Shown here piece by piece: positions 1-64,000 of a DNA stretch of 64,000 bases (positions are counted from its first letter, which is position 1; each line of letters begins with the position of its first letter). The notes below the pieces were generated by a model, which did no database searches, had not been told where the DNA came from, and was given only the letters and a program-made list of their open reading frames with translations. This stretch comes from Ailanthus altissimus (lineage: Eukaryota; Streptophyta; Magnoliopsida; Sapindales; Simaroubaceae). The position numbers were made by a program, and so were the translations under genes. Where the stretch lies: NCBI GenBank assembly GCA_946807835.1, contig OX327703.1, positions 9,865,501-9,929,500 of the forward strand. Reading direction: 5' to 3'.

Positions 1-686
1 ATGTATTATAATTTAGGCTAAAGTTCCTAGCAAGGCTAAGAGATGAACTTTTATGTGTAGTAAATCTACTTCCATGCTTTGATTCGGTGTCAAGAGCTAT
101 AAATGTTGTAAGTTTGGTTTTGATTAAACTCTTATCTATTTTATTTTCTATAATCCAGAGGTTATAATTCTCATATCTCATATATGTTCAGTCATGCTTT
201 TCTTATGTGATTCATGTTGATTTATAATTGTTACTGGTTACATTGTTTTATATGTTAATCTTTTACTGCAATATTGTCAAAATGATATATTGTCGATCTT
301 AGATAACTTGTATAAATAACATGATGTGTGTTAATGTTTGCAAAGAGTTTAACTAAATCAAATACATGTGTTATCAAATATGCTATATATTACATACCTT
401 CCGATTGATTGTTTGGGATGTGAAACTTTCAGTTGAGTTATAAATATCGAATCAAAGTATAGAGTAGATTTATAAAGCATAATTGTGATTCTCAAAGCCT
501 TGCTTAAATCATCATAAGACATTTTTCTCAATTCATAGACAATTCTATCTCATCCGTTTAAATCAATTAACCCTTTGCTACTGCTTTAATATTTTACTTC
601 ACTAACCTATTTTGCCAAGAGCTTCCTCGTGGGATCGACACCTCAATCTATACTGCGATAGCCGCGTTATATTTTGAGCGTAAACA
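1..686 (+). repeat. Athila-family LTR, 3' part, cut by the window start
   Basis: This segment matches the 3' part of the Ath-1 LTRs (about 32050-32813 and 42990-43775) and, reversed, the Ath-2 LTRs. It ends with the shared terminus GAGCGTAAACA at 686. No primer binding site follows, so it is a solo LTR or the 3' LTR of an element lying to the left. It makes a third copy of the LOG-carrying family in or at the edge of this window. Confidence 0.85.
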
Positions 687-31272: not shown

Positions 31273-32813
31273 TAATGAACACATTAAAATGAAAATTTAT
31301 TAAGCGATTCAGTCACCATTTAATGTCATTAATTTTTGCATTTTTGTATTTTTAGGCTTTACATAAAGTGTTGTCCTTAAATTATAATTAATGAATGTTA
31401 TTTGTACAAGTTTAGGTATAATAGACTTAACTCTCAATGTAGAAATCAAAATGAAGATATTTTTGAACTTGAAGTAACATGACTCAATCTTACACAAACT
31501 TCAAGAACAGTTAAAAAGCCAAATCCAACATGTTATGGGCCAAAAAGTGAGATACAATAGAATTGGGTTACAAGTTCCGCTCAGCTTGACCCAACTCACG
31601 TATTTGGACCATATTTCACAAAATACATACCCAATTGGTATAATTCTTGAAGTTATACAATATTGCCTTAATTGCAACAACTCTTATGTTGATGGTAAAA
31701 TCCAAATCAGTCGTTATCATGGACCAAATTGTACTACAAATGGGTAAAAGGGTTGTTGGCCGAAATCTGACATATCTTTGGCATTTTGCCTATATCTCAT
31801 TGGATACTCATCCAATTTGCATGAACCTGGTGGCTATAGAAAGAAGAGACAAAATAATACAACTTTTATGTCTACCAAAAAAGCTACACCGGTCATTTCC
31901 ATTATCAAATAGGTGCTATAATCGGATGAACGAGTGGTTGGCCTAAATTATTGAAGATTGAAGTCACACTAAACATATATCCATTCATTGCCTATATAAG
32001 GACACTCTTAGGATGTTTTTAACATTAGAAAATTATGTCAAGATTTATTCTCTTTAACATACATTGTAAGTTAGGCTAGAGTTTTTGGCAAGGCTAATAG
32101 ATGAACTTTTATGTGTAATAAATTTACTTCTATACTTTGATTCTTTGTCAAGAGCTATAAATATTTGTAAGTTTGTTTGTGCTTCAACTCTTATCTAGTA
32201 TTTTTTCTATAATCCAGATGTTATAATTCTCATGTTTCATATATTTTTAGTCATGCTTTCTTTTTGTGATTCTTGTTGAATTATAACTGTTATTAGATAA
32301 ATTATTTTACATGTTAATCTTTTACTGCAATATTGTCAATGGATATATTATCGATCTTGGATAACATGTAACGACAATAATTGTTTGATATTCAAGTTGA
32401 TCTTTTATTGTAATATTGTCAAAATGATATATTTTCGATCTTAGATAACTTGTATAAATAAACATGGTTTGTGTTAATGTTTGCAATGAGTTTAGTCATA
32501 TCAAATACATGTGTTATCAAATGTGCTGTATTTTACATATCTTCTGATTGATTGTTTGGGATGTAAAACTTTCAATTGAGTTATAAACATTGAATCAAAG
32601 TGTAGAGTATATTTATAAAGCATAATTGTGATTCTTGAAGCTTTGCTTAAATCATTATAAGACTTTTTCCTTAATTCATACACAATTCTATCTCATCCAC
32701 TTAAACTAATTAGTTAGTTTTCTCCTTGCTACTGCTTTAATATTTTTAATTCACCGTGGGATCGACACCTCAATTTATATTGCGATAGCCGCATTACATT
32801 TTAAGCGTAAACA
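31273..32813 (+). repeat. Ath-1 5' LTR
   Basis: It starts TAATGAACACATT (from TGATGAACACATG) and ends AAGCGTAAACA. It aligns along its length with 42211-43775, with 1-686 and with the Ath-2 LTRs. Reading frames inside it are not conserved between copies. Confidence 0.88.
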
Positions 32814-32818
32814 AAATA

Positions 32819-32836
32819 TGGCGCCATTGCAGAGGA
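32819..32836 (+). other. Primer binding site, tRNA-Asp type (Ath-1, decayed)
   Basis: TGGCGCCATTGCAGAGGA begins 6 bases after the LTR. Three changes from the Ath-2 site are visible. Confidence 0.8.
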
Positions 32837-33702
32837 GGCACACTAAGTGAAAGTAGGTTGCGTTTATCAATACTAAAGCGGTAACTTTGTACATTTTCTT
32901 TTCTTTGTAAAATTTTAGTTTTTAAATTTATTTTATTGTTCATGGTTGGTTTTATCACCTAACTTATTTTATCTTCTTTAGTTAATTTATTGTATTTTAT
33001 TTTATTTTAATGGCTAGTTCTACTGCCTAATTAGTTCATTTTCTTTTATTTATTTATTATATTTCGCACTTTATTTTCTTTTATTTATTATTGTACTTTA
33101 TTTTATTTTATTTATTTATCATACCTTGTACTTTATTTTATTTTGTTTATTGCACTTTATTTCCTTTATTTATTTATTGCATTTTATTTCTTTAGTTAAT
33201 TTGTTGTATTTTTATTTTAATAGTTGATTCTACCCCTAACTTATTTTATTTATTTATTGCACTTTATTTTATTTTATTTATTTATTACACTTTATTTTAT
33301 TGTATTTATTTATTACACTTTATTTTTTTTATTTATTTATTGCACTTTTTTCTTCCTTTATTTATTTATTGTACTTTGCAATTCATTTTCTTTTATTTAG
33401 TTATTGCACTTTATTTTCTTTTATTGATTTATTGTACTTTGTAATTTATTTTCTTTTATTATTTATTGTACTTTGCATTTTTTTTATTTATTGCACTTTT
33501 TTCTTTTATTTATTTATTGTACTTTTCATTTATTTATTGTACTTTACAATTTATTATCTTTTGTTCATTTATTGTATTCTATATTTATATTTAATGGTTG
33601 GTCTTACTACCTAACTCATTTCTATTTCTTGTTGTATTTTATTTCACTTCTTAATTTTCCTTGAGAATTTCCTTCATTAAATTTTTTTTTTTGTTAAGAT
33701 GT
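32837..33702 (+). repeat. Ath-1 leader minisatellite
   Basis: About 0.8 kb of TTTATTTATTGCACTTTATTTT-like repeats broken by an interspersed unit of the type GGTTGGTTTTATCACCTAAC (near 32943, 33010, 33220 and 33594). The same organisation, with six such units, is in the Ath-2 leader. Hydrophobic reading frames here (33300-33664) are translations of the repeat, not genes. Confidence 0.7.
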
Positions 33703-36700
33703 ATGCATTAACTTAGAGACAAACGAGAAAGATTTGTGAAAGAAGTATAACTAGAACCATCACTACAATTTGTAAGGAAAGAGAATTTACCATCTAGTTC
33801 ATGTTGTAATTCCAACACAATGAGCCAACACGAGGACAACCACGTTAGGACTCTAAAAGATTACCTGCATCTTACTCGCACAACCACACCATCATACATT
33901 ATATTTTCACCTAACACACCATATTCAGATTTTAAACCTAGAATGATACAACTTCTGTCTACTTTTCATGGTCTAGATAGTGAAAATCTTTATGTACATG
34001 TTAGGGAATTTGAAGAGGTAATTGCTACCTTCCTTAGCCAACTTGAAGCCGCAGACACTATTAGGCTTAAATTTGTCCCTTTTTCTTTAAAAGACAAAGA
34101 AAAATAGTTGACTATACTCTTTGAGGCTGAGGTCTATTGGAACTTGGGTAGAAATGACCCCAAGCATTTTTCAATAAATACTTCCCACAACATAAAACTA
34201 ATGGCTGGAAAAGACAAATTTCTTACTTCTCCCAAAATGACAGGAAAACCTAATATCAAGCTTGGGAAAGGTTTAAAGAGTTGTTAAATTTGTGCCCTCA
34301 CCATGGGTATGACAATTGGCGTTTGGTTAGCTTATTTTATGAGGGACTCACAATTAGAGAATGCCAATTTGTTGAGATTATGTGTAATGGGGAGTTTCTT
34401 TACAAAGATCCTCAGGAAGCCATAGAATTCCTTAATGACTTAGCCGAAAAAACCCATACATGGACTAGACCTAGCGCTACTAAAAGCACAAATAGGTCTT
34501 GACCTAGTGACATTTTTCATCTTAGGGAAAAGGATAGCCTTAAAGCCTAGTTAGAGGTCTTAACTAGGTAATTAGAGGCTTTGAAAACTAAAGATAGAAG
34601 GGTCACTCATACAGTTGTTAGGGTTGAGTCACATGATGTTTGTTTTGTCTATGGAGGAGCGGAACACTTAGCTTAGGATTACCACACTTATAGTGAGATG
34701 AGAGGGATATATGAGGAATAATGTAATGCCTTAAGGATATACAAGAAGCCTTATTCACCCTACTCTGAAACCTATAATTCTAGCTAGAGAAACCACCCAA
34801 ACTTTGGTTGGAAATCTGATTAACAAGCTAACAACCATTGGAAGCAAGAACAAGCACCCAAGTCTTATGGTGCACCTCAATATAATGGACGACCAGTCAA
34901 GAGTCCTTTAGAGGATACATTACAAGCATTTATAGAGGCACAAAGTAAGACTAATAAAAATTTTGAAATAATTTTTACACAGGTTGTAGACAAAAACAAA
35001 GAAATCAAGAGCCAAATCACTTAGCTGACGAGTGCCTTAACTGTACAAGAGCAAGGTAAGTTTCCATCTCAACCTCAATCTAATTCAAAAGGACAATACA
35101 TGGCACAAGCGTCTGCTTCTTATATATAAAATTTCAAAGAAGTCAATGCCATTACTACTCAAAATGGTAAGATTGTGAGTGAGCCTACTTCTCTAACTAA
35201 CACATCTATAAGTAGTAAAGAGGTCCTCATTGAAAAAGAGGCCACAATGGATAAAGTGCCCGAAAATAAGTTTTCAATCCTAGTGCCTTTTCCTCAAGCT
35301 CTTCAACCTGTTGAGAAAAATTCAAAAAATCAAGGTAAAATTTTAGAACATTTGAAACAAGTTAAGATTAATCTTCCCTTGTTACACTTGATTAAGCAGG
35401 TTCCAACTTATGCCAAAGTCATCAAGGATCTATGCGTTATAAAAAAAATACCATGCAAAGAAAATTACATTTTTGGAAATACAGGTAAGTGTAGTGATTG
35501 AACAAAAGACACCACCCAAGTATAAAGACCCAAGATGTCCCACAATCTCCTACCAAATTATGACATATGAGTTTGGTCAAGCTTTATTGGACTTAAGAGC
35601 AAGTGTAAATTTAATGCCTTATTCTATTTACTTGAAATTAGGACTTGGTGAGATTAAACTTACATCTGTAGTCCTACAATTAACTGACTGGTCGATCAAG
35701 AAACCACGAGAAATAGTAGAAGCTATTTTGTTACAAATTGATAAATTTTACTACCCTGTCAATTTTCTTGTTTTGGATACTTCTTTTGTGGTTAACATAG
35801 AGTCTAAAATCCCTCTTATTTTTGGAAGGCCTTTTCTTGTCACTTCTAACGCTCTTATTAATTACAGAAATTGTCTAATAAAATTATCTTTTGGGAATAT
35901 GACTCTTGAAGTGAATATATTCTATATTGGCAAACAACCACGAGAGAAAGATGAATGTTATCATTCATATATAATAGACACACTTGTAGTGGAAGAAGAT
36001 TATAAAAATTATAGCTCTGATTCTTTGGAAAACCTTCTTAATTTTGATTTTAAAGAATTGTGTTATCCTGATGAAACAACTAATGTGTTTAGTATTTTTG
36101 ATTCGTAGGATAAAAGGACTCGATTTCGGCAGCCACGCTATGAAGAATTGCCACGAGAGAAGGAGAGACCAAAACCATCAAACCTCGAGACACCATAAGT
36201 TGAGCTTTCTCTACTACCCAAAGGTTTAAAACACGCATTCTTAGGACAAGGTAATACCTTTCCTATCATTATTTCTTCTGCACTTAGTGCCGAACAAGAG
36301 AAAAAAATGATAAAATTATTAAAAGAACATAAGTCTGCACTAAGTTGGACCATAGCTGATATTAAAGATATTTCTCCATTAATATGCTCTCATAGAATTC
36401 ATTTAGAGGAAGGTGCCCAACTTCGTAAGAACCCACAAAGAAGACTTAACCAAACAATGAAAGAATTAGTGAAGAAAGAAGTCTTGAAACTATTAGATGC
36501 GGGTATAATCTACCCAATTTCTAATAGTTAATGGGTAAGTCCAACTCAAGTAGTGTCTAAGAAATCTAGGGCTATTATTGTAGAAAATGAGAATGGGATA
36601 CCTGTTTCAACTAGGGTAGTAAGCGGTTGATGAATGTGCATTAATTATAGAAAATCAAACACAGCCACCAAAAAAGACTGTTTTCCATTGCCTTTTATCG

Positions 36701-39170
36701 ACCAAATTTTAGAATATGTAGCTAGACATTCAGTTTATTACTTTCTTGATGGGTATTCAGGTTATTACTAGATTGAGATAGCTATAGAAGATCAAGAAAA
36801 TACCACTTTTACATGTCCTTTTGGTACTTATGCTTTTCGTAGAATGCCATTTGAATTATGTAATGCACCGACTACTTTTCAATGTTGTATGCTGAGTATT
36901 TTCTTTGATATGGTTGAAAAATGAATGGAAGTTTTTATGGATGATTTGACTATTTTTGTAGTTCTTTTTATTCATGTTTACTTAACTTAAAAGCTATTTT
37001 GAGTAGGTGTGAAGAAAAAGGACTTGTGCTAAATTGGGAGAAATGTCACTTCATGGTATCTTAAAGGATCGTCTTGGGTCATATTGTATCTGAAAAATGA
37101 TAGAGGTTGACAAGGCAAAAATTGAATTAATCTCTAAATTAGCTACACCTAAAACGGTAAAAGATGTCCGAATCTTTTCTTAAACATGCTGGATTTTACA
37201 GATACAAATGTTTTATACCATATCTAGATCATTTTGTAACCTTTTGCTAAAAGATGTTGAATTTACATGGACATAAGAGTGTGAGGAGGCATTCCAAACA
37301 CTTATTACCAAACTCACCGTCGTTCCTATCATATAATCACCGGACTGAAACCTCTCATTTGAAATTATGTGTGGTGCAAGTAATTATGCTGTAGGAGCAG
37401 TTCTTCGGCAATAAAGAGAAGGAAAATCGTTTGTTGTTTATTAGGCTAGTAGGACTTTGAAGGATCCTCAGATGAATTAAACTACTATTGAAAAAGAACT
37501 ACTAGAAATTGTTTTTGCCTTAAATAAATTTCATTCTTATTTGATTGGTTCACCTATTATTGTTTTTACTAACCATGCGGCCTTTAAGTACCTTCTTTCT
37601 AATAAGAATACTAAAGCTTATTTAATTAGGTGGATTCTTCTTTTGCAAGAATTTGATCTAACCATCAAAGACAATAAGGGTGTTGAAAATGTTGTTGCTG
37701 ATCATTTATCCTGCCTTGAGTTCACTGACTCCACTAATTTGCCACCCATTCAAGATGATTTCCCTGATGAACATCTTTTCACTATAAGCTAAATACGTTG
37801 GCACATACATATCGTAAATTATTTGGTTTGTGTTAAACTTTCATCTAACTAGAGTACACAAATAAGCGTAAGTTCTTGGTTGAGCTATGTAATTTTTATT
37901 GGGATGATCCATATCTTTTCAAATATTGTCCTGACTAAATTATGAGATGTTGTATTCCTAAAAGTGAAGTTTCTAGTGTCTTAAATTTTTGTTATAGTAC
38001 TGCTTATGGCAGCCATTTTTCTACGAAAAAGACAACCGTAAAATTTTTATAATGTGGTCTTTACTAGCCCACTTTGTTGAAAGACACTAATAATTTTTGT
38101 CATTCCCGTGAAAGATGTCAAAAGTTAGGTACTGTATCTCGAAGACATATGATGTCTCTTAACCCTATTCTTGTTATTGAGATATTTGATTTTTAGAGTA
38201 CCGATTTTATGGGTCTTTTTTCCTCATCTTTTGGCTAGCTTTACATCATTTTAGCTGTTGACTTTGCATCAAAATGGGTGGAGGTTGTAGCTTATTGTAC
38301 TAATGATAACACAACTGTGGTAAAATTCTTAAAAGAAAATGTTTTATCTAGGTATGGTACACCATTTGTCATCATTAGTGACCAAGGAATACATTTCTGT
38401 AACCGTTCTTTTGAAGCTTTAGAAAAGACTGTTAACTCGAATCGCAAAAAAATGGACTGTCATTTACCTATTTTGGAAAAGACTTGGCAAGCTTAAACAG
38501 ATCATTGTGTAACCTTCACAAAGTTTCTACTGCATACCATCTACAGAAAAATGGACAAGCCGAGCTAGCAAATATAGAGGTTAAACAGATTTTGGAAAAG
38601 ATTGTTAACTCGAATCGCAAAGATTGGTCTTTATGCCTTTTTGATGCACTATAGGCATATCGCACTACATACAAAACCATCTTAGGAATGTCTCCATACT
38701 AGCTTATCTATGGGAAAGGTTGCCATTTACCTATTGAGCTATAGCATAAAGCTTACTAGGCTGTCAAAGCTCTTAACTTTGATTTGAGTACTGCAAGTCT
38801 TCAAAGAAAGTTACAATTGTTAGAAATAGAAGAGCTATAAAATGATGCATATGACAACTCCAGGATTTACAAAGCTAAAATGAAAGCAGTTCATGAGAAA
38901 CAGATCTCAAGGAAACACTTTGAGCCAAATCAACGGGTTTATTTTTATGATTCTCGATTACATTTACACCCTGAAATGTTGAGATCTCGATGGACTAGTC
39001 CATTTATGGTAAGACATATTTTTCCTAATAGTGCTGTCAAAATCGAAGACTCCACTAATGACAAAATTTTCAAAGTGAATGGACAACGGCTGAAAAACTA
39101 TGTGGAAAAGGTAGACTACTCTATATACCTAAACGAGATCCCTCTTATGGATCATGTCTATCATGCCTGA
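33703..39170 (+). pseudogene. Ath-1 gag-pol (broken)
   Basis: Athila polyprotein remains in order: gag (33703-34500 onward, e.g. STFHGLDSENLYVHVREFEEV), CCHC knuckle region near 34640-34690 (damaged), protease 35570-35640 (D-L-R-A-S where the family has D-L-G-A-S), RT from about 36300 ([10 protein letters not shown]) with the FMDD box near 36935, RNase H to about 37700 (VADHLS), integrase 38090-39170 (ISDQGIHF; chromatin-side end LYLNEIPL-like). More than twenty stops and several indels are visible. Part of the integrase catalytic core (around 38430-38530) is rearranged, with a repeat of the KTVNSNRK segment. It cannot make enzymes. Confidence 0.88.
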
Positions 39171-39396
39171 TCAGGTTCAATCTATCTGTACTATATTTTA
39201 TATTTTGTCTATATTTTATCTTTTGACTTTTTTTTTATTTTTTTTATTTTGCTTTTATTTTTTTTCGTATTTTATTTTATTTTTTTATTTTTCTTTTTTA
39301 TTCATTGTGATTGTATTTCTCAGTCAAGTAGCGGATACGGTACTCCGTGACTATTAAAGTCGGTTCCTCAGTTCCCTAAGAATTGTCCCTTAAACC

Positions 39397-39932
39397 ATGC
39401 TAACCTTAAAAACCGTTTTCCTTCATTGCCTCAAAATACTCTATTTACGATTTACAAAGCACGGTGCGAAAAACTAAGGATATTAATGTTGAGTAATATC
39501 CTTGCGGATATTCGTTGGTTAATCGAAGCCAAAGTAATATTATCTAGTGAGTCTGCAAATGATTTTGTTTCTTTTATGCCTGGTCTTGGAAGAAGCTCTT
39601 ATGCCAAAAGGCGATGAGCAAAAATGTTACAAGTCTATCACAAATGTGTTCGATGGAATTCCAACCGAAGTTATCGTTCTTTAGGATTTACATCTAGAAA
39701 TCGAGAAGATAAAATTTAGTTCATTAAGGATGGACTAAGTAAGGAGTCTTTGGATGATATCCTATTGACTCTTGAGATGCATCCCTATAGGTTCGTGCAA
39801 CATGAACTTCTCGATTTATGAAATAAATTCAAAAATGAACATCAACGATACATTCTTAGGAATTTGACTCTAAAAAACCCTGTTTGCCAATTTTTAAGAA
39901 AATTGGATGGGAAGCCTATCCTCGACCTATAG
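39397..39932 (+). pseudogene. NABP-like basic Cys-rich gene, Ath-1 copy (broken)
   Basis: Counterpart of the 182-residue ORF at 56872-57420, in the same place after integrase. The 5' end is altered, so the start region is out of frame. A stop follows the basic stretch GRSSYAKRR (39585-39617). Of the four cysteines of the Cys-rich motif, two are replaced (C to Y and C to S), and several later stops occur. It ends at TAG 39930-39932. The presence of the same gene here shows that it was part of the retrotransposon before the copies split. Confidence 0.75.
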
Positions 39933-40191
39933 AGGGTGTTTAAGCTATTACTGGACGTAAAACCAGAGGAAAATGTGAGCCACAATCACAACTACCTGTA
40001 AATATATATGTGTTTTAATTTCAAACTTATTTTATTTTATAAATAATAGGGCTACTCATATTGATGTCTTAAATTCAAATCTTTTGGTTAAATAATGCAT
40101 GTAGGTCATTTGTTTAAATTTTTGTGGTTTATTTTTAAATCTCTTATAACAAACTGTCGTGTTACCAAAATCTTGTTATCATGTGGTACTC

Positions 40192-40199
40192 TATAAATA
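40192..40199 (+). promoter_or_regulatory. TATA box upstream of the Ath-1 LOG pseudogene
   Basis: TATAAATA ends 53 bases before the ATG at 40252. Ath-2 has the same box at exactly the same distance. Confidence 0.55.
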
Positions 40200-40251
40200 T
40201 AGCACCTCATTTTCTTCATTTTTATATATTGAGATAAAGGTGAGTGTAGAT

Positions 40252-40807
40252 ATGGAGGAAACCTCAGTTCGACAATTTTGAAATATATATGTATTTTTTG
40301 GATCTAGTCCTGGAGAAAATAAAGTGTTTGTAGAGGTAGCAAATAATCTAGAAAAAGTATTAACTGCAAGAAAAATCCATTTGATTTATAGAGTGGGTAG
40401 CCTTTGGTTAATGAGGTGTGTGTTAATAGCTGCACATTTAGGAGGAAGTCAAGTTTTAGGTATTATTCCTAAAGTTTTTAGCCGTGGAAAACCTGACTGG
40501 AAAAATAATAGGAGAAGAATTACGAGTCTTATCCATGCATGAACGTATAGCTAGAATACTTTACTATGCAGATGCTTTTATTGCTTTACCAGATGGTTTT
40601 AGTACCTTGGAAGAAAATTTTCAAATTGCCTCTTGGACCCAGCTGAATATCCACCGAAAAACTATAATCCTCATTTCTGCTACCAATACAGATGAATTGA
40701 TTGACAAATTATAGGCAGTTATCTACGAACCTAACCCAACAATAACTCGGATCAATTGGTCAGTGGGCCATAACAAGCGACAATTGGATCTAACACTTCG
40801 TTTGTAA
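40252..40807 (+). pseudogene. LOG-family cytokinin-activating enzyme gene, Ath-1 copy (broken)
   Basis: Decayed copy of the LOG ORF at 55908-56555. Visible are the N-terminal FGSSPGENKVFVE, the middle HLGGSQVLGIIP, the MHERIAR helix and a C-terminal tail ending LDLTLRL. Damage includes a stop near codon 10, a frameshift near 40485, loss of the glycine-rich loop (YGGGS has become YRVGS), and an active-site motif changed to PDGFSTLEE. An internal deletion of about 31 codons follows NIHRK (near 40660). It is non-functional. Placement and order match Ath-2 exactly. Confidence 0.9.
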
Positions 40808-42210
40808 ATTTTTCTTTGTTTTATTTATTTATTAGTATCCTCATTTTAGTTTATATTTGCTTAATTGTCTCTCAGGTTTATTTCTTTTGAATAACTGGCA
40901 TTTTAGGTAATGCCTTCTATACTTTATCTTTTTTTATTTAAACATTTAAAATAATGTTTCATCTAGTTTGGGGGAGGATAGTAGACAAAAGTTGTATTTT
41001 GCATTCCAAAAAAAAATTCAAAAAAAAAAGAGAGATAATAGGGTCTGACATTTGATTAAAATGGCAGAGTAAATAGTTCATTCTTAAACTCTTGACACGC
41101 ATTCTATGTCAAATTAGATTAAGAATGATAAAGTAAGGAGTTTTATTTTTAACTTTTGAAACTTATTTTAACTAACTTGTTGTTATTTTGTTTTATATTT
41201 CATGCATTGTTGTTTATTGCTTGTAGTCTTGATAATTCTTGTATAAAGGAAGTTGTTTTTCTATCTAGGTATGATTTCAAAATTGTTTAAGTTGAGTCAC
41301 GGTTTCTATTTAGGTTACTAAAGAATGACTGTTGAAACATTTTTTAACATAATCCTAAGCCTTATGGTAAGATGGATGATTCAATTTATATAGCCAAGAG
41401 AATTCTCATGTTTAAGTATATATTTTTCTAATCTCACATATCTTTTTTGAGTAAGTGAAAATATTGATAAAATAGCTTATGAACCTTCTTGATCCTTTGA
41501 ATTGGTTAATTTTTATTTAAATTGATATTATTTGAATTAAGGAATAAATTGGTTGCATTTGTGTATAATATATTTTAGTGAGAAACTTTTGTAATGCATT
41601 TATATTTATTTTGTAATGCTTCCTTGTATTCTTCCAAAAAAAAAAGAGAGAAAGCAAAATACCAATAAAAAATTAGAAAGAAAAAAAGAAGAATCAATTC
41701 AATTTAATAAAGTCTTCATTCAATTTTAGAAGACAAATATTTTGTAAGGCAGGTTTCTTACCAAACTATATTGGTATTATTCTCACAACACAATTGAAGT
41801 CCTAAAGCTGGTAAAAGTCAAGAATGATTGATTTCTAAACGATTAATTTTCTTATCTTTACATCAATGTTAGTTTGTATGTCTATCCTTAAAATTGACTT
41901 TTTCTTGAGTGCTTAACTGTTTTCCAACTCCATAAAAGAAATCCTAACATTTTAAACAGTCATACACTTGTGAGGATATAAAGTTGAGGTTTTTACTTAG
42001 AGAAATTCTCAAGGCTATATTTGTTGTGGTTTATGAAAAGATGGTTACGGCTCAGTTCACACACACACAATTTTTTAAAGTAATAATTGAAAAAACCATA
42101 ATAGCAATAGTGATCTTGAACTGATTTTTTGTTTGAAATGCTTAGGTAGTTTTGCATATTTTATTTACGCTTGAATTGCTAGAGACTAGCAATAAGCTGG
42201 TTGGGGGCTG
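40808..42210 (+). other. Ath-1 3' untranslated interior with two polypurine tracts
   Basis: Non-coding and AT-rich. A purine-rich GGGGGAGGATAG preceded by TTT lies at about 40967-40981, and the polypurine tract TTGGGGGCTG (42201-42210) abuts the 3' LTR. The region aligns with Ath-2 54532-55907 reversed, including both tracts. No ORF is conserved. Confidence 0.65.
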
Positions 42211-43775
42211 TGATGAACACATGAAAATGCATATTTATTAAGAGATTCAATCACCATTTAATATCACTAATTTTATCATTTTTGTATTTTTAGCTTGAAA
42301 TAAAGTGTTCTCTTTAAATTGTGATTAATGAATATTATATATACAGGTTTAGGTAAAATGGACGTAACTTTCAATGTAGAAATTGAAATGAATTTTTTTT
42401 GAACTTGGAGTAACATGACTCAATCGTACACAAACTTGAAAGAACAACTGAAAAGCCAAATCCAACATGTTATGGGCCAAATAGTGAGATACAATAGAAC
42501 TGGGTTATACGTTTCGCTCAGCTTGACCCAACTCAAGTATTTGGACTGTATTTCACAAAATTAATACCCAATTGATATAATACCTGTAGCTGTGCAATAC
42601 TGACTTAATTATTAACAACTCTTATGTTGATGATAAAGTTCAAATCAGCCGTTATCACGGACCAAATTGTATTACAAATGGGTAAAAAGGTAATTGGCTA
42701 AAATCTGATATATCTTTGAAATTTTTCCCATATCTCATTGGATACTCATCCAATTTACATGAACCTGGTGGCTATGGAAAGAAGAGACAAAATACTACAA
42801 CTTTCATGTTGACTAAAAAGGCTACATCGGGCATTTCCATTATTAAAAAGGTGCTGCAATTGGGTGAACAAGTGGCTGGCCTAAATTATTGAAGATTGAA
42901 GTCACACTAAACATATTTCCATTCATTGCCTATATAAGGACACTCTTAGGACATTTGTTACATTAGAAAATTCTTTCATATTTTTTTATCTTTAACATGT
43001 ACTGTAAACTAGGCTATAGTTCTTAACAAGGCTAAGAGATGAACTTTTATGTGTAGTAAACCTACTTCTATACTTTGATTCTTTGTCAAGAGCTACAAAT
43101 GTTTATAAGCTTGTTTGTGCCTAAACTCTTATCTAGTATTTTTCTATAATTCAGAGGTTATAATTCTCATATTTTATATATTTACAGTCATACTTTCTTT
43201 ATGTGATTCTTGTTGAATTATAATTGTTATTGGTTACATTGTTTTACATGTTAATCTTTTACTGCAATATTGTCAATCGATATATTGTTGATCTTGGATA
43301 ATATGTAAAGATAATAATTGTTTGATATTCAAGTTAATCTTTTACTGTAATATTATCAACATGATATATTGTCGATCTTAGATAACTTGTATAAATGAAC
43401 ATGGTTTGTGTTAATGTTTGCAAAGAGTTTAGTCATATCAAATACATGTGATATCAAATGTGCTGTATTTTACATATCTTCTGATTAATTGTTTCGGATG
43501 TGAAACTTTCAATTGAGTTATAAATATTGAATCAAAGTGTAGAGTAGATTTATAACGCATAATTATGATTCTCGAAGTCTTGATTAAATCATCATAAGAC
43601 TTTTCCCTTAATTCATAAATAATTCTATCTCATCCACTTAAACCAATTAGTTAATTTTCTCCTTGCTACTACTTTAATATTTTTACTTCACCAACCTATT
43701 TTGCCAAAAGCTTTCTCGAGGAATTGACACCATAATCTATATTGCGATAGCCATATTATATTTTGAGCATAAATA
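42211..43775 (+). repeat. Ath-1 3' LTR
   Basis: It starts TGATGAACACATG and ends GAGCATAAATA (CA decayed to TA). It is the partner of 31273-32813. Confidence 0.88.
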
Positions 43776-44006
43776 ATGCCCAGCACCTATCGCTGCAGCG
43801 CTAGCGCTTGGAAGCCCTAGCGTCACGACACCAACTACCCAGTCCTATGGCGCTGAGCACTTATGGCCATAGTGCTCCGATGCTCTCTGATTTCGGTATA
43901 CCCATTACAATAACTTGAAATGTACATTTTAAGCACCGAACATTACCAACAACAATTTTGCACTCAAAATACCCAATATCAACTCAAATAAGTTCTGATA
44001 CCATTT
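43776..44006 (-). other. Copia-2 5' leader, LTR-proximal part, with primer site
   Basis: It resumes the Copia-2 leader after Ath-1. A GC-rich tract with GCGCTAGCGCT-like words lies at 43785-43885. The minus-strand primer site TGGTATCAGAAC is at 43992-44003, four bases from the LTR. Confidence 0.75.
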
Positions 44007-51995: not shown

Positions 51996-54531
51996 TGTTT
52001 ACGCTCAAAATATAACGCGGTTATCGCAGTATAGATTGAGGTGTCGATCCCACGAGGAAGTGATAAGGGCAAATTTGTCATATATTTTCTCATGTTTTTA
52101 TTATTGATATTTTATGGTTTTATGAGAATAGATGGCTATTTATGTGCATTATTGTTATTTATAGGGACTTGAACAAAATTTAAAGAAAGAACGCAAAAGG
52201 AGCGAAAACAGGGACTAAAATGCAAAGTTTTCAAATTATGAGTCCAGTGCCCCAGCGCCACAAGTATTGTCGCCCCAGCGCTGAAATAGTGATCGAAATA
52301 AGAAAAACGACCTGCTTAAGTTGCGTCTAGCGCCCCAGCGCCAAAGAGTCACCGCACCAGCGACGATTTATCGCCCCAGCGCTATCAACATACTGCGCCA
52401 GCGGTGAAGCCGTTTTCATGCAGCGCCCCAGCGCCAAGATATGGTGAATGAGTTGGTAATATTATTGATAAACTCGGAAGAGGAATCATAATATTTAGAC
52501 CTAGGTAATTTGATGCATGATTGTAGAGTAACATTCAATGTTGCATATGCAAGTTTCAACTTAGGATAGGAATATACCTAATTGGCATGTATGATCAATA
52601 AGACCTAATCTTAATAAATCTTAATTTATTACAAGTACCATAGGAATATAGGTATTTGGTAAATTAGGGTATACTTGCATGACCTTGGAAGAGGCTTGTG
52701 AATACATTAGTGTCTTGATCAATAATAAAGACTAAGTGAGTTAGATATTAGAGGATTAATCATTAAAAAGTATATTGAGGGATAATATTAATCCTAGGTT
52801 TTCTCTACGTTGTTATCTTTAAATCTCATCGCATTGTGTTTTTACTTTTATATTTTCTACATTCATTCTTGAATTTTTATTTTTCTGAATAATTATTAGG
52901 AAGACATAATTTTAGTAATTGGTTAATAAGAAGAAATTATCCCTGTGGGTTCGACATCCGACTTATTTAGTCTCTTTATTACTTGCATACGATAGTGTAT
53001 GCTTGCACTTAATTTATGATATAGAATTATCGCATCAGGAAGCTCTTGGCAAAATAGGTCAGTGAAGTAAAATATTAAAGCAGTAGCAGAGGGTTAATTG
53101 ATTTAAACGGATGAGATAGAATTGTCTATGAATTGAGGAAAATGTCTTATGATGATTTAAGCAAGGCTTTGAGAATCACAATTATGCTTTATAAATCTAC
53201 TCTATACTTTGATTCGATATTTATAACTCAACTGAAAGTTTCACATCCCAAACAATCAATCGGAAGGTATGTAATATATAGCACATTTGATAACACATGT
53301 ATTTGATTTAGTTAAACTCTTTGCAAACATTAACACACATTATGTTATTTATACAAGTTATCTAAGATCGACAATATATCATTTTGACAATATTGCAGTA
53401 AAAGATTAACTTGAATATCAAACATTTATTGCCCTTACATGTTATCCAAGATCGACAATATATCAAATTGACAATACTGCAGTAAAAGATTAACATATAA
53501 AACAATGTAACCAGTAACAATTATAAATCAACATGAATCACATAAGAAAAGCATGACTGAACATATATGAGACATGAGAATTATAACCTCTGGATTATAG
53601 AAAATAAAATAGATAAGAGTTTAATCAAAACCAAACTTACAACATTTATAGCTCTTGACACCGAATCAAAGCATGGAAGTAGATTTACTACACATAAAAG
53701 TTCATCTCTTAGCCTTTCTAGGAACTCTAGCCTAAATTACAATACATGTTAATGAGAATAAAAGAAGAGAGAATTATCTCTTACAAATTTCCTAAGGGTC
53801 TCCTTATATAGGCAATGAATGGACATATGTCATGGATGACATCAATCTTCAATAATTTTAAGCCAATAACTCGTGTATCCACTTGCAGCATGTTTTTGAT
53901 AATGTAAATGATCAATTCAGCTTCTATAGCCGACATGAAAGTTGTATAATTTTGACTCTTCTTTCCATAGGCACTGATTTCATGCAAATTGGATGAGTAT
54001 CCAATGCGATATGAGCGAAATTCCAAAGATACATCAGAATACGGCCAACAACCATTTTACCCACTTGCAATGCGATTTGGTCCATGATAACGGCTGATTT
54101 GGACTTTACCATAAACATACGAGTTGTTGATAGTTAAGTCAGAAATTCACAGCTTTAAGAATTATACCAATTGAGTACGTATTTTGGGAGATACGGTCCA
54201 AATACATGAGTTGGGTCAAGCTGGGTAAGAGTTGTAGTCCGATTCTGTTGTATCTCAATTTTTGGCCAATAACATGTTGGATTTGGCTTTTCCACTATTC
54301 TTCAAATTTGTGTAAGATTGAGTCATGTTGCACCAGGTTCAAGAATTTCTTCATTTCGATTTCTACATTGAGAGTTATGTCCAATTCACCTAAACCTGTC
54401 CAAATAACATTCATTAATCACAATTTAAGGAGAACACTTTATTTCAAGCTAAAAATACAAAAAATAGTAAAATTAGTGACATTAAATGGTGATTGAATCT
54501 TTTAACAACATGCATTTTCATGTGTTCATCA
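51996..54531 (-). repeat. Ath-2 3' LTR, interrupted by a solo LTR
   Basis: Plus-strand ends are TGTTTACGCTC (51996) and TGTTCATCA (54531). Without the 977 bp insertion and its target duplication it is about 1554 bp, like the Ath-1 LTRs (1541 and 1565). The opposite LTR is only partly inside the window. Confidence 0.9.
52061..53037 (+). mobile_element. Solo gypsy LTR in the Ath-2 LTR, target duplication GGAAG
   Basis: A 977 bp insertion starting TGATAAGGGC and ending TATCGCATCA, flanked by GGAAG (52056-52060 and 53038-53042). The uninterrupted sequence is seen at 63890-63920. It carries at least six copies of a GCGCCCCAGCGCC-like word between 52247 and 52436 in an otherwise AT-rich sequence. 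It has no coding content. It inserted after Ath-2, so it is the youngest datable event here. Confidence 0.9.
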
Positions 54532-55907: not shown

Positions 55908-56555
55908 TTACAAACGAAGTGTCAGATCCAATTTTCGCTTGTTAAGGCCCACTGACCAATCGATCCGAGTTATTGCTGGGTCAGGTTCGTAGGTAACTGC
56001 CTGTAATTTGTTAATCAATTCATCCGCCTCAGTAGCAGATACCAGGATCTGTCGCGCCGAATGTGAAATAAAATTCTGTTCCACAGCTTGATCAAGAAAA
56101 CAAAGTAAGTAATCAAAATAGTTATTAACATTCAACAAACCTATGGGTTTTCGGTGAATATTCAGTTGGGCCCAAGAGACAATTTGAAAAATTTCTTCCA
56201 AGGTACCAAAACCACCTGGTAAAGCAATAAAAGCGTCTGCATTGCAAAGCATTCTGGCTATACGTTCATGCATGGATGAGACTCGTAATTCTTCTCCTAT
56301 TGTTTTCCCGGCTAGGTTTCCCACGGCCAAAGCTGTAGGAATAATACCTAAAACTTGACTTCCTCCTAAATGTGCAGCTGTTGACACACACCCCATTAGC
56401 CCAAGGCTACCTCCTCCATAAATCAAATGAATTTTTCTTGCAGCTAATGTTTTTCCTAGATTGTTTGCTGCTTCTACGAACACTTTACTCTCCCCAGGAC
56501 TAGATCCACAAAATACACATATATTTCGAAATTGTCGAACTTGGGTTTCCTCCAT
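55908..56555 (-). CDS. LOG-family cytokinin riboside 5'-monophosphate phosphoribohydrolase carried by a retrotransposon
   Basis: A complete 215-residue LONELY GUY (LOG) protein. LOG enzymes cleave ribose 5'-phosphate from cytokinin nucleotides to release active free-base cytokinin, usually in cytosol and nucleus. Seen here: Rossmann-like N-terminus with FCGSSPG (15-21), glycine loop YGGGSLGLMG (46-55), MHER (95-98) giving the catalytic Arg98, and the hallmark PGGFGTLEE (113-121) with Glu121, then WAQLNIHRKPIGLLN (128-142). Length is normal for the family (about 210-220). The Met at 56555 is chosen because homology starts there and a TATA box lies 53 bases upstream; the frame stays open for 23 more codons upstream. 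No introns, whereas plant LOG genes normally have several. It lies between integrase and the 3' LTR on the element's coding strand. No stop or missing motif is seen, so activity is plausible but inferred. The C-terminal 25 residues (after YEPDPAITRIDW) are not typical of LOGs I know. Confidence 0.93.
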   Translation of the reverse strand: MEETQVRQFRNICVFCGSSPGESKVFVEAANNLGKTLAARKIHLIYGGGSLGLMGCVSTAAHLGGSQVLGIIPTALAVGNLAGKTIGEELRVSSMHERIARMLCNADAFIALPGGFGTLEEIFQIVSWAQLNIHRKPIGLLNVNNYFDYLLCFLDQAVEQNFISHSARQILVSATEADELINKLQAVTYEPDPAITRIDWSVGLNKRKLDLTLRL

Positions 56556-56607
56556 ATCTACTCTCACCTTTATCTCAATATATGAAAATGAAGAAACTGA
56601 GGTGCTG

Positions 56608-56615
56608 TATTTATA
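56608..56615 (-). promoter_or_regulatory. TATA box of the retrotransposon-borne LOG gene
   Basis: The minus strand reads TATAAATA, ending 53 bases before the ATG at 56555. Transcription starting about 25-30 bases downstream would give a leader of roughly 25 bases. The box and its spacing are identical in Ath-1. It may be a transplanted or evolved internal promoter that makes LOG expression independent of the LTR. Confidence 0.55.
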
Positions 56616-56871: not shown

Positions 56872-57420
56872 CTATGGGTCGGGGATAGGCTTCCCATCCA
56901 ATTTTCTTATAAATTGGCAAACAGGGTCTTTTAGAGTCAGATTCCCGAGACTATACCGTTGATGTTCATTTTTGAATTTGTTCCATAAATCGAGAAGTTC
57001 ACGTTGCACGAGCCCACAGGGATGCGTCTCAAGAGTCAATAGGATATCATCCAAAGACTCCTTACTCAGTCCATCTTTAATGAACTGAATTTTGTCTTCT
57101 CGATTTTTAGATACGAATCCTAAAGAACGACAACTCCAATTACAATTCCATCGAGCACATTTATGACAGACTTGTAACCTTTTTGCTCGTCGCCTTTTGG
57201 CATAAGAGCTTCTTCCAAGACCAGGCATATGAGAAACAAAATCATTTTCAAACTCACCAGACAACCGAACCTTAGCTTCAATTAACCAACGAAGGTCCAC
57301 AGGGATATTACCCAACATCAATAGCCTGAGTCTTTCACACCGTGCTTTGTAAATCTTAAGTAGAGCATTTTGAGGAAATGAAGGAAAACATTTTTTAAGG
57401 TTGGCAAGAATGCGATCCAT
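56872..57420 (-). CDS. Basic Cys-rich protein resembling carlavirus-type nucleic-acid-binding proteins
   Basis: A 182-residue ORF starting at ATG 57420, 249 bases after integrase and 316 bases before the LOG ATG. The core is a strongly basic stretch GLGRSSYAKRRRAKRL (67-82) followed directly by a Cys cluster C85-x2-C88-x4-C93-x3-C97, and then IQFIKDG (111-117). This order (G-x-S-x-Y-A-[KR]-[KR]-R-R-A, then a C-x2-C finger, then a hydrophobic F-I-x-x-G) is the pattern of the small nucleic-acid-binding proteins of carla- and vitivirus-like plant RNA viruses. In those, the second cysteine pair is spaced more widely, so the match is not exact. The N-terminal 60 residues are helical-looking; the C-terminal 65 (LDDILLTLETHP...KPIPDP) I do not recognise. 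Nuclear or RNA binding is inferred from the basic patch. An alternative is a diverged retroelement accessory protein. Confidence 0.6.
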   Translation of the reverse strand: MDRILANLKKCFPSFPQNALLKIYKARCERLRLLMLGNIPVDLRWLIEAKVRLSGEFENDFVSHMPGLGRSSYAKRRRAKRLQVCHKCARWNCNWSCRSLGFVSKNREDKIQFIKDGLSKESLDDILLTLETHPCGLVQRELLDLWNKFKNEHQRYSLGNLTLKDPVCQFIRKLDGKPIPDP

Positions 57421-57669: not shown

Positions 57670-58692
57670 TCAATCACGATAGACAGGATCTACAAGAGGG
57701 ATCTCGCCTAGGTACATAGAGTCGTTTACCTTTTCCACGTAGCTTTTTAGCCGCTGTCCATTCACTTTGAAAGTCCGTCCATCAGTGGGGTCTTCTATTT
57801 CAACAACACCATTAGGAAAAACATGTCTTACCATAAATGGACCAGTCCATCGAGATCTCAACTTTCCAGGGTGTAAATGCAATCGAGAATCATAAAGATA
57901 GACCCGTTGATTTGGCTCAAAGTGTTTCCTTGAGATCTGTTTATCATGAGCTACTTTCATTTTAACTTTGTAAATTCTGGAGTTGTCATATGCGTCATTT
58001 CGTAGCTCTTCTATTTCTGACAATTGTAACTTTCTCTGGAGACCTGCAGCATTCAAATCAAAGTTAAGGGCTTTGACAGCCCAATAAGCTTTATGTTCTA
58101 GCTCAACAGGTAAATGACAAGCTTTCCCATAAACAAGCCAGTATGGAGACATTCCTAAGATGGTTTTGTATGCAGTGCGATATGCCCATAATGCATCAGA
58201 AAGGCGTAGAGACCAATCTTTGCGATTCGGGTTAACCGTTTTTTCTAAAATCTGTTTAACCTCTCTATTTGCTAGCTCGGCTTGTCCATTTGTCTGTGGA
58301 TGGTATGCAGTGGAAACTTTGTGAAGAACACCATACCTGCGCATCAAAGCTTCAAAAGAACGATTACAAAAATGTGTTCCTTGGTCACTAATGATGACAC
58401 GTGGCGTACCGTACCTAGATAACACATTTTCTTTTAAGAATTTTACCACAGTTGTATTATCATTAGTACGACAAGCTACAGCCTCCACCCATTTTGATAC
58501 ATAGTCAACAGCTAAAAGGATGTAAAGATAGCCAAAAGATGAAGGAAAAGGACCCATAAAATCGATACCCCAACAGTCAAATATCTCGATAACAAGAATA
58601 GGGTTAAGAGGCATCATATTTCTTCGAGATAAAGCACCTAACTTTTGACATCTTTCATAGGAACGACAAAAATTATTAGTGTCTTTGAACAA
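57670..58692 (-). CDS. Ath-2 integrase part of pol
   Basis: 340 codons of Athila integrase, which inserts the cDNA into the genome. It has the N-terminal zinc-finger Cys half (C9, C15; a Tyr at 12 where relatives usually have Cys), the catalytic triad D44 (GIDFMGPF), D103 (ISDQGTHF) and E139 (NGQAE), and a C-terminal domain ending with the Athila-type [12 protein letters not shown] region (about 309-320). It is split from the RT frame by a single nonsense codon at 58699-58701 (TAG where Trp is expected). The zinc-finger His half (CHSAACGGH) is on the RT side of that stop. The catalytic core itself looks intact. Confidence 0.9.
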
Positions 58693-58698
58693 AGTGGG

Positions 58699-60141
58699 CT
58701 AATAAAGACCACACTGTAAAATTTTCACAGCTGTCTTCTTCATAGAAAAATGGCCACCGCAAGCAGCACTATGGCAAAAATTTAAGACATTAGAAACTTC
58801 ACTTTCAGGAATGCAACGTCTCATGATTTGGTCAGGACAGTATTTGAAAAGATATGGATCATCCCAATAAAAGTTATGTACCTTAACCAAGAACTTACGC
58901 TTATCTTGTGCACTCCAGTCAGATGGAAGTTCACCACAAACCAAATAATTTACGATATGTGCATACCAAGGTATTTTGCTTATAGCAAAAAGATGTTCAT
59001 CTGGAAAATCGTCTCGAATGGGTGGCAAATCAGTGGAGTCAGTGAACTCAAGGTGGGATAGATGATCAGCAACAACATTTTCAATGCCTTTCTTATCTTT
59101 GATGGTTATATCAAATTCCTGCAAAAGAAGAATCCACCTAATTAAACGGGCTTTAGCATCCTTCTTAGAAAGAAGGTACTTAAGGGCTGCGTGGTCAGTA
59201 AAAATAACAATAGGTGAACCAATCAAATAAGAACGAAATTTATCTAAGGCAAAAACAACAGCTAATAGTTCTTTTTCAGTAGTGGTGTAATTCATTTGAG
59301 CATCATTCAAAGTCCTACTAGCATAATAAACAACAAAGGGTTTTCCCTCCCTCCGTTGCCCAAGAACTGCTCCTACAGCATAATTACTTGCATCACACAT
59401 AATTTCAAATGGGAGGTTCCAATCCAGTGATTGCATGATAGAAGCGGTGGTGAGTTTGGCAATGAGTGTTCGGAATGCCTCTTCACACTCTTGTGTCCAT
59501 GTAAATTCTGCATCTTTTAGAAAAAGGTTACACAATGGTCTAGATATGGCAGAAAAATTTTGTATAAACCTTCTGTAAAAGCCAGCGTGTCCAAGAAAAG
59601 ATCGGACATCTTTTACCGTTTTAGGTGTAGGTAATTTAGAGATTAATTCAATTTTTGCCTTGTCAACCTCTATCCCTCTTTCAGATACAATGTGCCCCAA
59701 AATGATTCCTGAAGATACCATGAAATGACGTTTCTCCCAATTTAGCACAAGTCCTTTTTCTTCACACCTACTCAAAACAGATTTCAAGTTAAGTAGGCAT
59801 AAATCAAAAGAATTACCAAAAACAGTCAAATCATCCATAAAGACTTCCATGCATTTTTCAACTATATCAGAGAAAATACTCAACATGCAACGCTGGAAAG
59901 TAGCTGGTGCATTACATAATCCAAATGGCATTCTACGAAAAGCATAAGTACCAAAAGGGCATGTAAAAGTAGTTTTTTCTTGATCTTCTATAGCTATCTC
60001 AATCTGGTAATACCCTGAATACCCATCAAGAAAGCAATAAAAAGAATGTCCAGCTACACGTTCTAAAATTTGGTCGATAAAAGGCAATGGAAAATAGTCT
60101 TTCCTAGTGGCTGTGTTTAACTTTCTATAATTAATACACAT
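58699..60141 (-). CDS. Ath-2 reverse transcriptase and RNase H part of pol
   Basis: 480 codons from the first Met, with the frame open further upstream. RT: INYRKLN at the start, [11 protein letters not shown] (37-47), catalytic FMDD (101-104), then [12 protein letters not shown] (149-160). RNase H: D250 (CDASNYAVG), E291 (TEKELLAVV), D316 ([10 protein letters not shown]), D359 (VADHLS). The residue pattern is that of the Athila lineage of Ty3/gypsy. It ends at a nonsense codon (58699) just before integrase; the RT N-terminal part is in the preceding frame because of a one-base deletion near 60260. Motifs needed for both activities are present. Confidence 0.92.
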
Positions 60142-63818: not shown

Positions 63819-63836
63819 TCCCCGGCAACGGCGCCA
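63819..63836 (-). other. Primer binding site, tRNA-Asp type (Ath-2)
   Basis: The minus strand reads TGGCGCCGTTGCCGGGGA, the standard Athila primer site, starting 7 bases from the LTR end. Confidence 0.9.
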
Positions 63837-63842
63837 AATTTT

Positions 63843-64000
63843 TGTTTACGCTCAAAATATAACGCGGCTATCGCAGTATAGATTGAGGTGTCGATCCCAC
63901 GAGGAAGCTCTTGGAAAAATAGGTCAGTGAAGTAAAATATTAAAGCAGTAGCAAAGGGTTAATTGATTTAAACGGATGAGATAGAATTGTCTATGAATTG
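63843..64000 (-). repeat. Ath-2 5' LTR, 3' end only
   Basis: The last 158 bases of the LTR, cut by the window end. It matches 51996-52060 plus 53043-53135 and, reversed, the end of 1-686. Confidence 0.9.

What the first reader, a model, noticed from the sequence alone, without database searches (positions are those of the whole stretch)
55908..56555. An intact cytokinin-activating LOG gene is cargo of an Athila-type retrotransposon
Directly seen: a 215-residue ORF with all LOG hallmarks (FCGSSPG, YGGGS loop, Arg in MHER, PGGFGTLEE) on the coding strand between integrase and the 3' LTR. Known: LOG enzymes release active cytokinin and promote cell division; Athila elements usually carry an envelope-like ORF or no ORF here. 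Inference: a replicating element that carries a hormone-activating enzyme could raise local cytokinin in cells where it is active, for example meristem or germline-forming tissue. I know of no described retrotransposon with a LOG gene.
Basis: partly seen in the sequence, partly recalled or inferred. Interest (0 to 1): 0.93.

Follow-up and report, generated by a model that had tools for sequence, protein, structure and literature searches.

The report
Hormone-activating gene carried by jumping genes
A tree's retrotransposons carry, in many copies, an intact gene for an enzyme of the kind that switches on the growth hormone cytokinin; such carriage was reported before, but here the gene keeps its own promoter, shows signs of selection, has also entered a second unrelated element, and in its original element sits beside a plant-virus-like gene.

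Summary
Confirmed: window 55908-56555, minus strand, is an intact 215-aa LOG (cytokinin-activating family) gene between integrase and 3' LTR of an Athila-type element in Ailanthus altissima. It is not unprecedented: LOG-like (YgdH) domains in Gypsy elements of Citrus and Populus are in print (PMC9289625, citing Steinbauerova 2011).

What the calls add: (1) 1747 genome-wide matches to the PGGFGTLEE pattern, reversed control 0. (2) Sampled element LOGs form one clade inside the plant LOG tree and lack the introns of host LOG genes, pointing to one old capture from spliced mRNA. (3) Between-family dN/dS 0.11-0.37. (4) TATAAATA lies 60-73 nt before the LOG ATG in 13 of 13 aligned copies although flanks have diverged. 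(5) TATA+LOG also sits antisense in an abundant element without gag-pol whose LTR pairs are near-identical; its within-family dN/dS is 0.19. (6) Athila copies also carry a conserved ORF of the carlavirus nucleic-acid-binding family (members include silencing suppressors and one proliferation-inducing transcription factor).

Likely role: the element makes active cytokinin so that its host cell keeps dividing. Expression, enzyme activity and effect are untested. New variant of a known kind.

The parts
55908..56555 (-). LOG-like ORF, 215 aa, intact, no introns
   Evidence: lacks the six introns seen in 10 of 21 host LOG loci
56608..56615 (-). TATAAATA box 60 nt upstream of the LOG ATG, putative own core promoter
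   Evidence: present 60-73 nt before the ATG in 13 of 13 aligned copies of all families; one further locus (L022) was dropped because it has no ATG at that place
56872..57420 (-). 182-aa ORF of the carlavirus nucleic-acid-binding (cysteine-rich) protein family: basic motif plus C-x2-C-x4-C-x3-C
   Evidence: PF05515 32.8 bits (cut-off 23), PF01623 30.5 bits (cut-off 20.9); 59-sequence alignment
57670..58692 (-). integrase ORF
   Evidence: PF00665 E 4e-17
58699..60141 (-). reverse transcriptase and RNase H ORF; in this copy gag-pol is split into separate ORFs
   Evidence: PF00078, PF17917, PF17919
60237..62624 (-). gag (and downstream) ORF
   Evidence: PF03732 E 5e-11
63820..63836 (-). primer-binding site TGGCGCCGTTGCCGGGG (tRNA-Asp type, recalled as typical of Athila)
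63843..64000 (-). part of the 5' LTR inside the window; it continues to the equivalent of 65396 in L009
54532..54543 (-). polypurine tract next to the 3' LTR (GGTTGGGGGCTA)
   Evidence: sequence printed
53029..54531 (-). 3' LTR, about 50 bp shorter at its 3' end than the 5' LTR
31275..43776 (+). older copy of the same family; its LOG (about 40252-40807) is decayed

Best explanation
The ORF is a real accessory gene of an Athila-type LTR retrotransposon. SHOWN here: intact LOG ORFs in many copies; sampled element LOGs form one clade nested among host LOG genes; no introns; purifying selection between families; a TATA box kept 60-73 nt before the ATG; a virus-type zinc-finger ORF just upstream; the TATA+LOG cassette also present, antisense, in a second element family without gag-pol that transposed very recently. 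INFERRED: LOG was captured once from a spliced host LOG mRNA, is transcribed from its own promoter, and makes free cytokinin bases from cytokinin nucleotides in the cell where the element is active. This would favour cell division and meristem identity, so that new insertions are made in, and passed on by, dividing lineages that lead to gametes. Because even an element that must borrow gag-pol keeps the gene under selection, the benefit probably falls on the cell carrying the copy (more daughter cells) rather than on the transposition machinery.
For: LOG family and motifs. 1747 PGGFGTLEE pattern matches, control 0. Layout integrase - NABP - LOG on one strand in 7 of 9 and, of 12 Athila-type loci taken in genome order, in 11 of 12 (7 of 7 family 3, 4 of 5 family A). 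Clade of sampled element LOGs: SH-aLRT 99.9, UFBoot 100, branch 0.64, nested with host loci L015/L024/L029/L034 at 100/100 (42 sequences). Six shared intron positions in 10 of 21 host loci, none in element LOGs. dN/dS A-3 0.11-0.15, A-2 0.19-0.27, 3-2 0.31-0.37. Within family 2: 42 synonymous, 27 nonsynonymous, 0.19; LOG differs by 0.8-1.8% between copies whose spacer differs by up to 6.8%. TATA: 12 of 12 identical sites between WIN, L059 and L057 against 85/194, 86/194 and 98/179 upstream. Family 2: TSDs CATGA and CTTAT, LTR differences 2/2725 and 1/2855, PBS and PPT on the strand opposite to LOG in 2 of 2 copies, no gag-pol frame on either strand. Precedent that plant viruses raise cytokinin: geminivirus AC2/C2 (PMC8062710, passages).
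Against: No RNA, enzyme or phenotype data. The NCBIfam equivalog for cytokinin LOG (NF058542) scores 117 against a cut-off of 300. PMC11593424 (passages) reports that some plant LOGs mainly make the riboside and that activity does not follow phylogeny. The clade sits on a long branch and family 2 has YGGGNRGLMG in place of YGGGSxGLMG; two open family-2 copies have further changes in conserved motifs (L054, L056). Within family 3 the changes look near neutral (27 synonymous, 70 nonsynonymous, 0.77, p 0.15), as in dead copies. Selection counts within a family share one reference copy and are not independent. The first tree gave the whole clade with Xanthoceras only 0.48 support. The conserved TATA is not proof of transcription.
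Confidence: 0.55

Rival explanations
1. LOG serves the element by another chemistry: as a nucleotide phosphoribohydrolase it alters nucleotide pools or destroys adenine-nucleotide immune signals, so that host defence against the element is blunted. Cytokinin would be incidental.
For: The protein also matches the SLOG cluster family LDcluster4 (PF18306). It has diverged on a long branch and lost YGGGS in family 2. Its neighbour belongs to a family with RNA silencing suppressors.
Against: PGGxGTxxE and MHER are kept in the family proteins compared; no evidence of another substrate here.
Confidence: 0.15
2. Passive cargo: LOG was captured once and hitch-hikes; the low dN/dS only reflects ancestry from a few master copies.
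For: Within family 3, and in the older family-A copies, changes approach neutrality; window copy B is decayed.
Against: Between-family dN/dS 0.11-0.37 at dS 0.47-2.07 means the reading frame was kept through long periods of replication, including in family 2 without gag-pol (0.19); the TATA box is kept as well.
Confidence: 0.12
3. Host-level use: the copies, or some of them, act as ordinary host LOG genes and the host rather than the element selects for them.
For: Intact ORF plus a TATA box looks like a small gene.
Against: Copy number (1747 motif matches) and their place inside elements with LTR pairs, PBS and, in two family-2 copies, TSDs; copies decay once old.
Confidence: 0.05
4. Chance or assembly artefact: a host LOG fragment lying inside an element.
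For: None found.
Against: Many dispersed copies with the same flanks and target-site duplications.
Confidence: 0.01

Closest known systems
LOG-like (YgdH / LOGL4) extra ORFs in Athila/Gypsy elements of Citrus and Populus (Steinbauerova et al. 2011, recalled; PMC9289625 section 12)
   Same: LOG domain as an extra ORF in a plant Ty3/Gypsy element; order (Sapindales for Citrus) and Populus overlap with the relatives found here.
   Different: From what I could read there: no mention of the neighbouring NABP-type ORF, of an own promoter, of selection tests or of an antisense copy in an element without gag-pol. The 2011 paper itself was not readable.
Phalaenopsis Gypsy elements with a functional AlkB m6A demethylase (PMC9289625)
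   Same: Host-type enzyme fixed as an accessory gene of a Gypsy element.
   Different: RNA demethylase, activity shown in vitro; here a hormone-pathway enzyme, activity not shown.
Grande gene transcribed from its own promoter (title seen in the reference list of PMC7264820)
   Same: Accessory gene near the 3' end with its own promoter.
   Different: Encodes a nuclear protein of unknown type, not an enzyme of hormone activation; here the promoter is inferred from sequence only.
Carlavirus cysteine-rich / nucleic-acid-binding proteins such as chrysanthemum virus B p12 (PMC12172455 passages; PMC7588395 abstract start in search listing)
   Same: Basic motif followed by a cysteine motif; Pfam PF05515 and PF01623 above cut-off.
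   Different: The element ORF is longer (182 aa), the cysteine spacing (2-4-3) is its own, and no function has been tested.
Geminivirus AC2/C2, which raises cytokinin by inhibiting adenosine kinase (PMC8062710 passages)
   Same: A plant mobile genetic parasite that favours cell cycling through cytokinin.
   Different: Acts by inhibiting a host enzyme; here an activating enzyme would be encoded directly.

Membership tests
Plant LOG (cytokinin riboside 5'-monophosphate phosphoribohydrolase) | PGGxGTxxE motif and LOG domain over the whole length | tested here: met
Plant LOG (cytokinin riboside 5'-monophosphate phosphoribohydrolase) | Score above the cut-off of the NCBIfam cytokinin-LOG equivalog | tested here: not met
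   NF058542 117.4 bits, cut-off 300; the subfamily model TIGR00730 is passed
Plant LOG (cytokinin riboside 5'-monophosphate phosphoribohydrolase) | Nested among plant LOG genes in a tree | tested here: met
Plant LOG (cytokinin riboside 5'-monophosphate phosphoribohydrolase) | Releases free cytokinin base | not testable with these tools
   needs an enzyme assay
Athila (Ty3/Gypsy OTA clade) | gag, RT-RNase H, integrase in Gypsy order between LTRs | tested here: met
Athila (Ty3/Gypsy OTA clade) | No second (archaeal) RNase H, which marks Tat (PMC6317226 passages) | tested here: met
   no second RNase H family reported in the three gag-pol ORFs scanned
Athila (Ty3/Gypsy OTA clade) | tRNA-Asp type primer-binding site | tested here: met
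   TGGCGCCGTTGCCGGGG at 63836-63820; that this is the Athila type is recalled
Athila (Ty3/Gypsy OTA clade) | Position in an RT/INT phylogeny | not tested
   no reference set of Athila domains was used
Carlavirus nucleic-acid-binding protein family | Pfam PF05515 and PF01623 above curated cut-off | tested here: met
Carlavirus nucleic-acid-binding protein family | Same fold | tested here: inconclusive
   model pLDDT 62.6; no BFVD match at E<=0.001, though 30 of 39 weak matches are flexivirus-type proteins
Carlavirus nucleic-acid-binding protein family | Silencing suppression or transcription activation | not testable with these tools
   needs an assay
Non-autonomous LTR retrotransposon (family 2) | LTR pair, TSD, PBS, PPT, no gag-pol | tested here: met
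   two copies examined, L057 and L056; no gag-pol frame in L057 on either strand

The most novel reading that the evidence does not exclude
LOG with its TATA box is a portable promoter-plus-gene cassette that moves between unrelated plant LTR retrotransposons, and together with the carlavirus-type zinc-finger ORF it forms an element-encoded growth and anti-silencing module: the zinc-finger protein blunts silencing or switches on host growth genes, LOG supplies active cytokinin, and the cell carrying a fresh copy outgrows its neighbours, so that the element gains by cell-lineage drive towards the gametes.
Probability: 0.25. Interest if true: 0.88.

Novelty: new variant of a known kind. Interest (0 to 1): 0.62.

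Why it matters
Why LTR retrotransposons keep extra genes is an old open question. Here is a gene of well-known family, kept under selection with its own promoter through deep divergence and moved to an element that has no gag-pol, so the question 'what does it do for the element' becomes directly testable by enzyme assay, promoter assay and RNA-seq. If LOG is active, a genome with more than a thousand copies also carries a large hidden reservoir of cytokinin-activating genes. The pairing with a virus-type silencing-suppressor family suggests that plant retrotransposons and RNA viruses share tools.

Tried and rejected
Tried without result: viral-contig scans with LOG and with the NABP ORF (13 and 7 pattern stretches, no confirmed relative). 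Pfam on the 411-aa frame of family 2: no family at E<=1; protein search with its 386-aa part: one relative, 94% identical, so it stays unidentified. Fold search with the NABP model: no significant match. Genome-wide counts per family by pattern could not be obtained: the request was unanswered each time; family shares rest on a hand sort of the first 100 listed places (61 family 2, 22 family A, 17 family 3). LTR dating: a pair was found for 2 of 5 further family-A copies tried (L044/45, L046/47); none in the stretches fetched for L040/41, L042/43, L048/49.

Considered and rejected: 'LOG carriage is new' (in print); 'NABP is the usual Athila envelope' (it matches a viral nucleic-acid-binding family instead); 'family 2 is an Athila deletion derivative with LOG in sense' (no LTR similarity to family A; PBS and PPT lie on the other strand). 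Corrected on re-check: the TATA distance of L067, printed as 53, was measured from an upstream ATG; it is 61, so the range is 60-73. A notebook line that all nine element-type loci show integrase-NABP-LOG overstates; it is 7 of 9. That family 2 is chromovirus (Tekay/Del)-like is only a recalled impression from the LTR ends and is not claimed as tested.

Full report
IDENTITY OF THE GENOME. The window is G000:C21:9865501-9929500 of a 939 Mb assembly in 37 contigs. I take the source to be Ailanthus altissima drAilAlti1.1.

THE OBSERVATION. The LOG ORF is real, on the minus strand, 56555-55908, 215 aa. It matches PF03641, TIGR00730 and Arabidopsis At2g37210, and falls below the cut-off of the NCBIfam cytokinin-LOG equivalog (117 against 300). 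The element on that strand has gag (PF03732), RT-RNase H, integrase, a tRNA-Asp type PBS at 63836-63820 (the type is recalled), and LTRs that differ at 24 of 1503 sites (K 0.016). Its gag-pol is split into separate ORFs, while LOG and the ORF upstream of it are whole. The second copy in the window is older (LTR K 0.126) and its LOG is decayed.

THE NEIGHBOUR. Between integrase and LOG lies a 182-aa ORF above the curated cut-offs of two Pfam families of viral nucleic-acid-binding proteins, PF05515 and PF01623. A protein search gave 539 relatives at E<=0.001 among 644 candidates; the 120 listed rows all carry PF01623 and include Populus, Xanthoceras, Acer and Rhamnella. In 59 aligned relatives C88 and C93 are invariant, C85 and C97 are at least 90% conserved, and a basic stretch precedes them. 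The structure model is poor (pLDDT 62.6) and the fold search has no match at E<=0.001, yet 30 of its 39 weak matches are flexivirus-type silencing suppressors or nucleic-acid-binding proteins (the method also uses sequence). Between families A and 3 this ORF is constrained (dN/dS 0.18-0.19). Carlavirus members include chrysanthemum virus B p12, described as a silencing suppressor and a transcription factor that induces hyperplasia (PMC12172455 passages; PMC7588395 abstract start in the listing). Paper searches for such an ORF in retrotransposons listed none that I recognised; absence in print is claimed for those searches only.

COPY NUMBER AND FAMILIES. The pattern for PGGFGTLEE has 1747 exact matches, control 0; since host LOG genes have an intron within this motif, nearly all should be element copies (inference). 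A hand sort of the first 100 listed places by codon spelling gives 61 family 2, 22 family A (the window's) and 17 family 3. Twenty loci were fetched from that list, chosen by spelling in genome order. Family 3 (7 loci): integrase, NABP and LOG on one strand in 7 of 7; LOG about 66%, NABP about 75%, integrase about 69% identical to the window for intact members. Family A (5 loci): the same in 4 of 5. Family 2 (8 loci): LOG about 60% identical, no NABP or integrase within 2.3 kb upstream in 8 of 8. Of 33 matches to YGGGS[IV]GLMG, 30 were fetched: 9 element-type (7 with integrase and NABP) and 21 host loci.

ORIGIN. Ten of 21 host loci show the same six introns; seven are cut by the fetched stretch and show three or four; four are odd or broken (L019, L020, L031, L039). 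Element LOGs have no introns. In a maximum-likelihood tree of 42 sequences (a chosen part of those at hand) all element or element-like LOGs form one clade (99.9/100) nested with host loci L015, L024, L029 and L034 (100/100), on a branch of 0.64. An earlier FastTree run with 84 sequences agreed but gave the clade with Xanthoceras 0.48. The clade holds proteins of Xanthoceras, Reevesia, Diplodiscus, Pterospermum (one cluster of 327 members), Populus, Paulownia and Melia. That these sit in elements is not shown; it is suggested by cluster sizes and by three pairs of LOG and NABP hits whose contigs have the same length and source type (8723, 4511, 2128 bases). The simplest reading is one capture from spliced mRNA long ago; horizontal transfer is not excluded.

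SELECTION. Pairwise dN/dS of intact LOG ORFs: A-3 0.11-0.15 (synonymous sites near saturation), A-2 0.19-0.27, 3-2 0.31-0.37 (11 sequences chosen for open frames). Against one reference copy, with broken copies included: family 2, 42 synonymous and 27 nonsynonymous, 0.19, p 2e-11; family A, 78 and 131, 0.51, p 4e-6; family 3, 27 and 70, 0.77, p 0.15. The copies share a reference and ancestry, so the p-values overstate. Family 3 behaves as dead copies should. In family 2, LOG differs from L057 by 0.8-1.8% in five copies, the spacer by 6.6-6.8% in four of them and 1.7% in L055.

PROMOTER. TATAAATA lies 60-73 nt before the LOG ATG in 13 of 13 aligned copies of families A (with its older relatives), 3 and 2; L022 was dropped for lack of an ATG. 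The 12-nt block around it is identical between WIN, L059 and L057 (12 of 12), while the sequence upstream agrees at 85/194, 86/194 and 98/179 sites, and between TATA and ATG at 23/51, 24/46 and 44/59. I read this as a functional core promoter; no transcript was examined.

A SECOND CARRIER. Family 2 is a 9.2-kb element (C1:20256871-20266113 for L057) with 2.7-kb LTRs, differing at 2 of 2725 sites in L057 and 1 of 2855 in L056, and perfect 5-bp TSDs (CATGA, CTTAT). Its 3.8-kb interior has LOG, a 411-aa frame without known relatives beyond one near-identical protein (dN/dS 0.47), and no gag-pol frame on either strand. PBS (TGGTATCAGAGC) and polypurine tract lie on the strand opposite to LOG in both copies, so LOG is antisense. 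Its LTR has no similarity to that of family A. Nucleotide similarity to family 3 starts 71 nt before the ATG, just outside the TATA box, and runs to the stop codon (80%), with a further 98 bp downstream in L064 (not in L010). So promoter and gene moved, or were kept, together; a captured LOG mRNA would not have contained the TATA box (inference).

HOW IT WORKS. Known biochemistry: LOG releases free cytokinin from its nucleotide; in PMC11593424 (passages) some plant LOGs mainly yield the riboside instead, so activity must be measured. Viruses use the pathway: geminivirus AC2/C2 raises cytokinin response (PMC8062710 passages). I infer that LOG expressed from its own promoter promotes division of the cell in which the element sits. 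A trans-acting enzyme would help every copy alike; selection on a gag-pol-less element suggests a benefit tied to the carrying cell, for example more descendants in a meristem. This step is the least supported.

PRIOR ART AND VERDICT. PMC9289625 (abstract, passages and section 12 read) reports YgdH/LOG in Gypsy consensuses of two Citrus species and, without its filter, Populus trichocarpa, citing Steinbauerova et al. 2011, which was not held. The 2026 review on gene capture (PMC13317346) does not contain 'cytokinin' or 'Athila'. The finding is therefore a new variant of a known kind: known carriage, with selection, promoter, viral-type partner and second carrier added.

Noticed in passing
56556-56575 (minus strand), just before the LOG ATG: A GGTGAG motif like a 5' splice donor precedes the ATG in most aligned copies of all three families; unexplained.
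   Followed up: no
G000 C1:24780265/24786744, C1:26416833/26423428, C2:4158190/4164638; family A C1:28385331/28396184, C3:33583065/33593891: LOG copies recur about 6.5 kb (family 2) or 10.85 kb (family A) apart, which fits interior plus one LTR: tandem arrays sharing an LTR.
   Followed up: no
L057:589-1749: 386-aa ORF in family 2 without Pfam match, one known relative (94%), mild constraint.
   Followed up: partly
window 1-691: A further LTR end of the same family, 97% identical in inverted orientation to the LTR of the window's element.
   Followed up: no
L019, L020, L039 (C13:29.68-29.75 Mb): A cluster of host LOG loci with stops or missing parts, probably pseudogenes of a local duplication.
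   Followed up: no
P0135 and P0166: NABP clusters with 566 and 315 member sequences from ENA, suggesting very high copy number of this ORF in other, unnamed plants.
   Followed up: no
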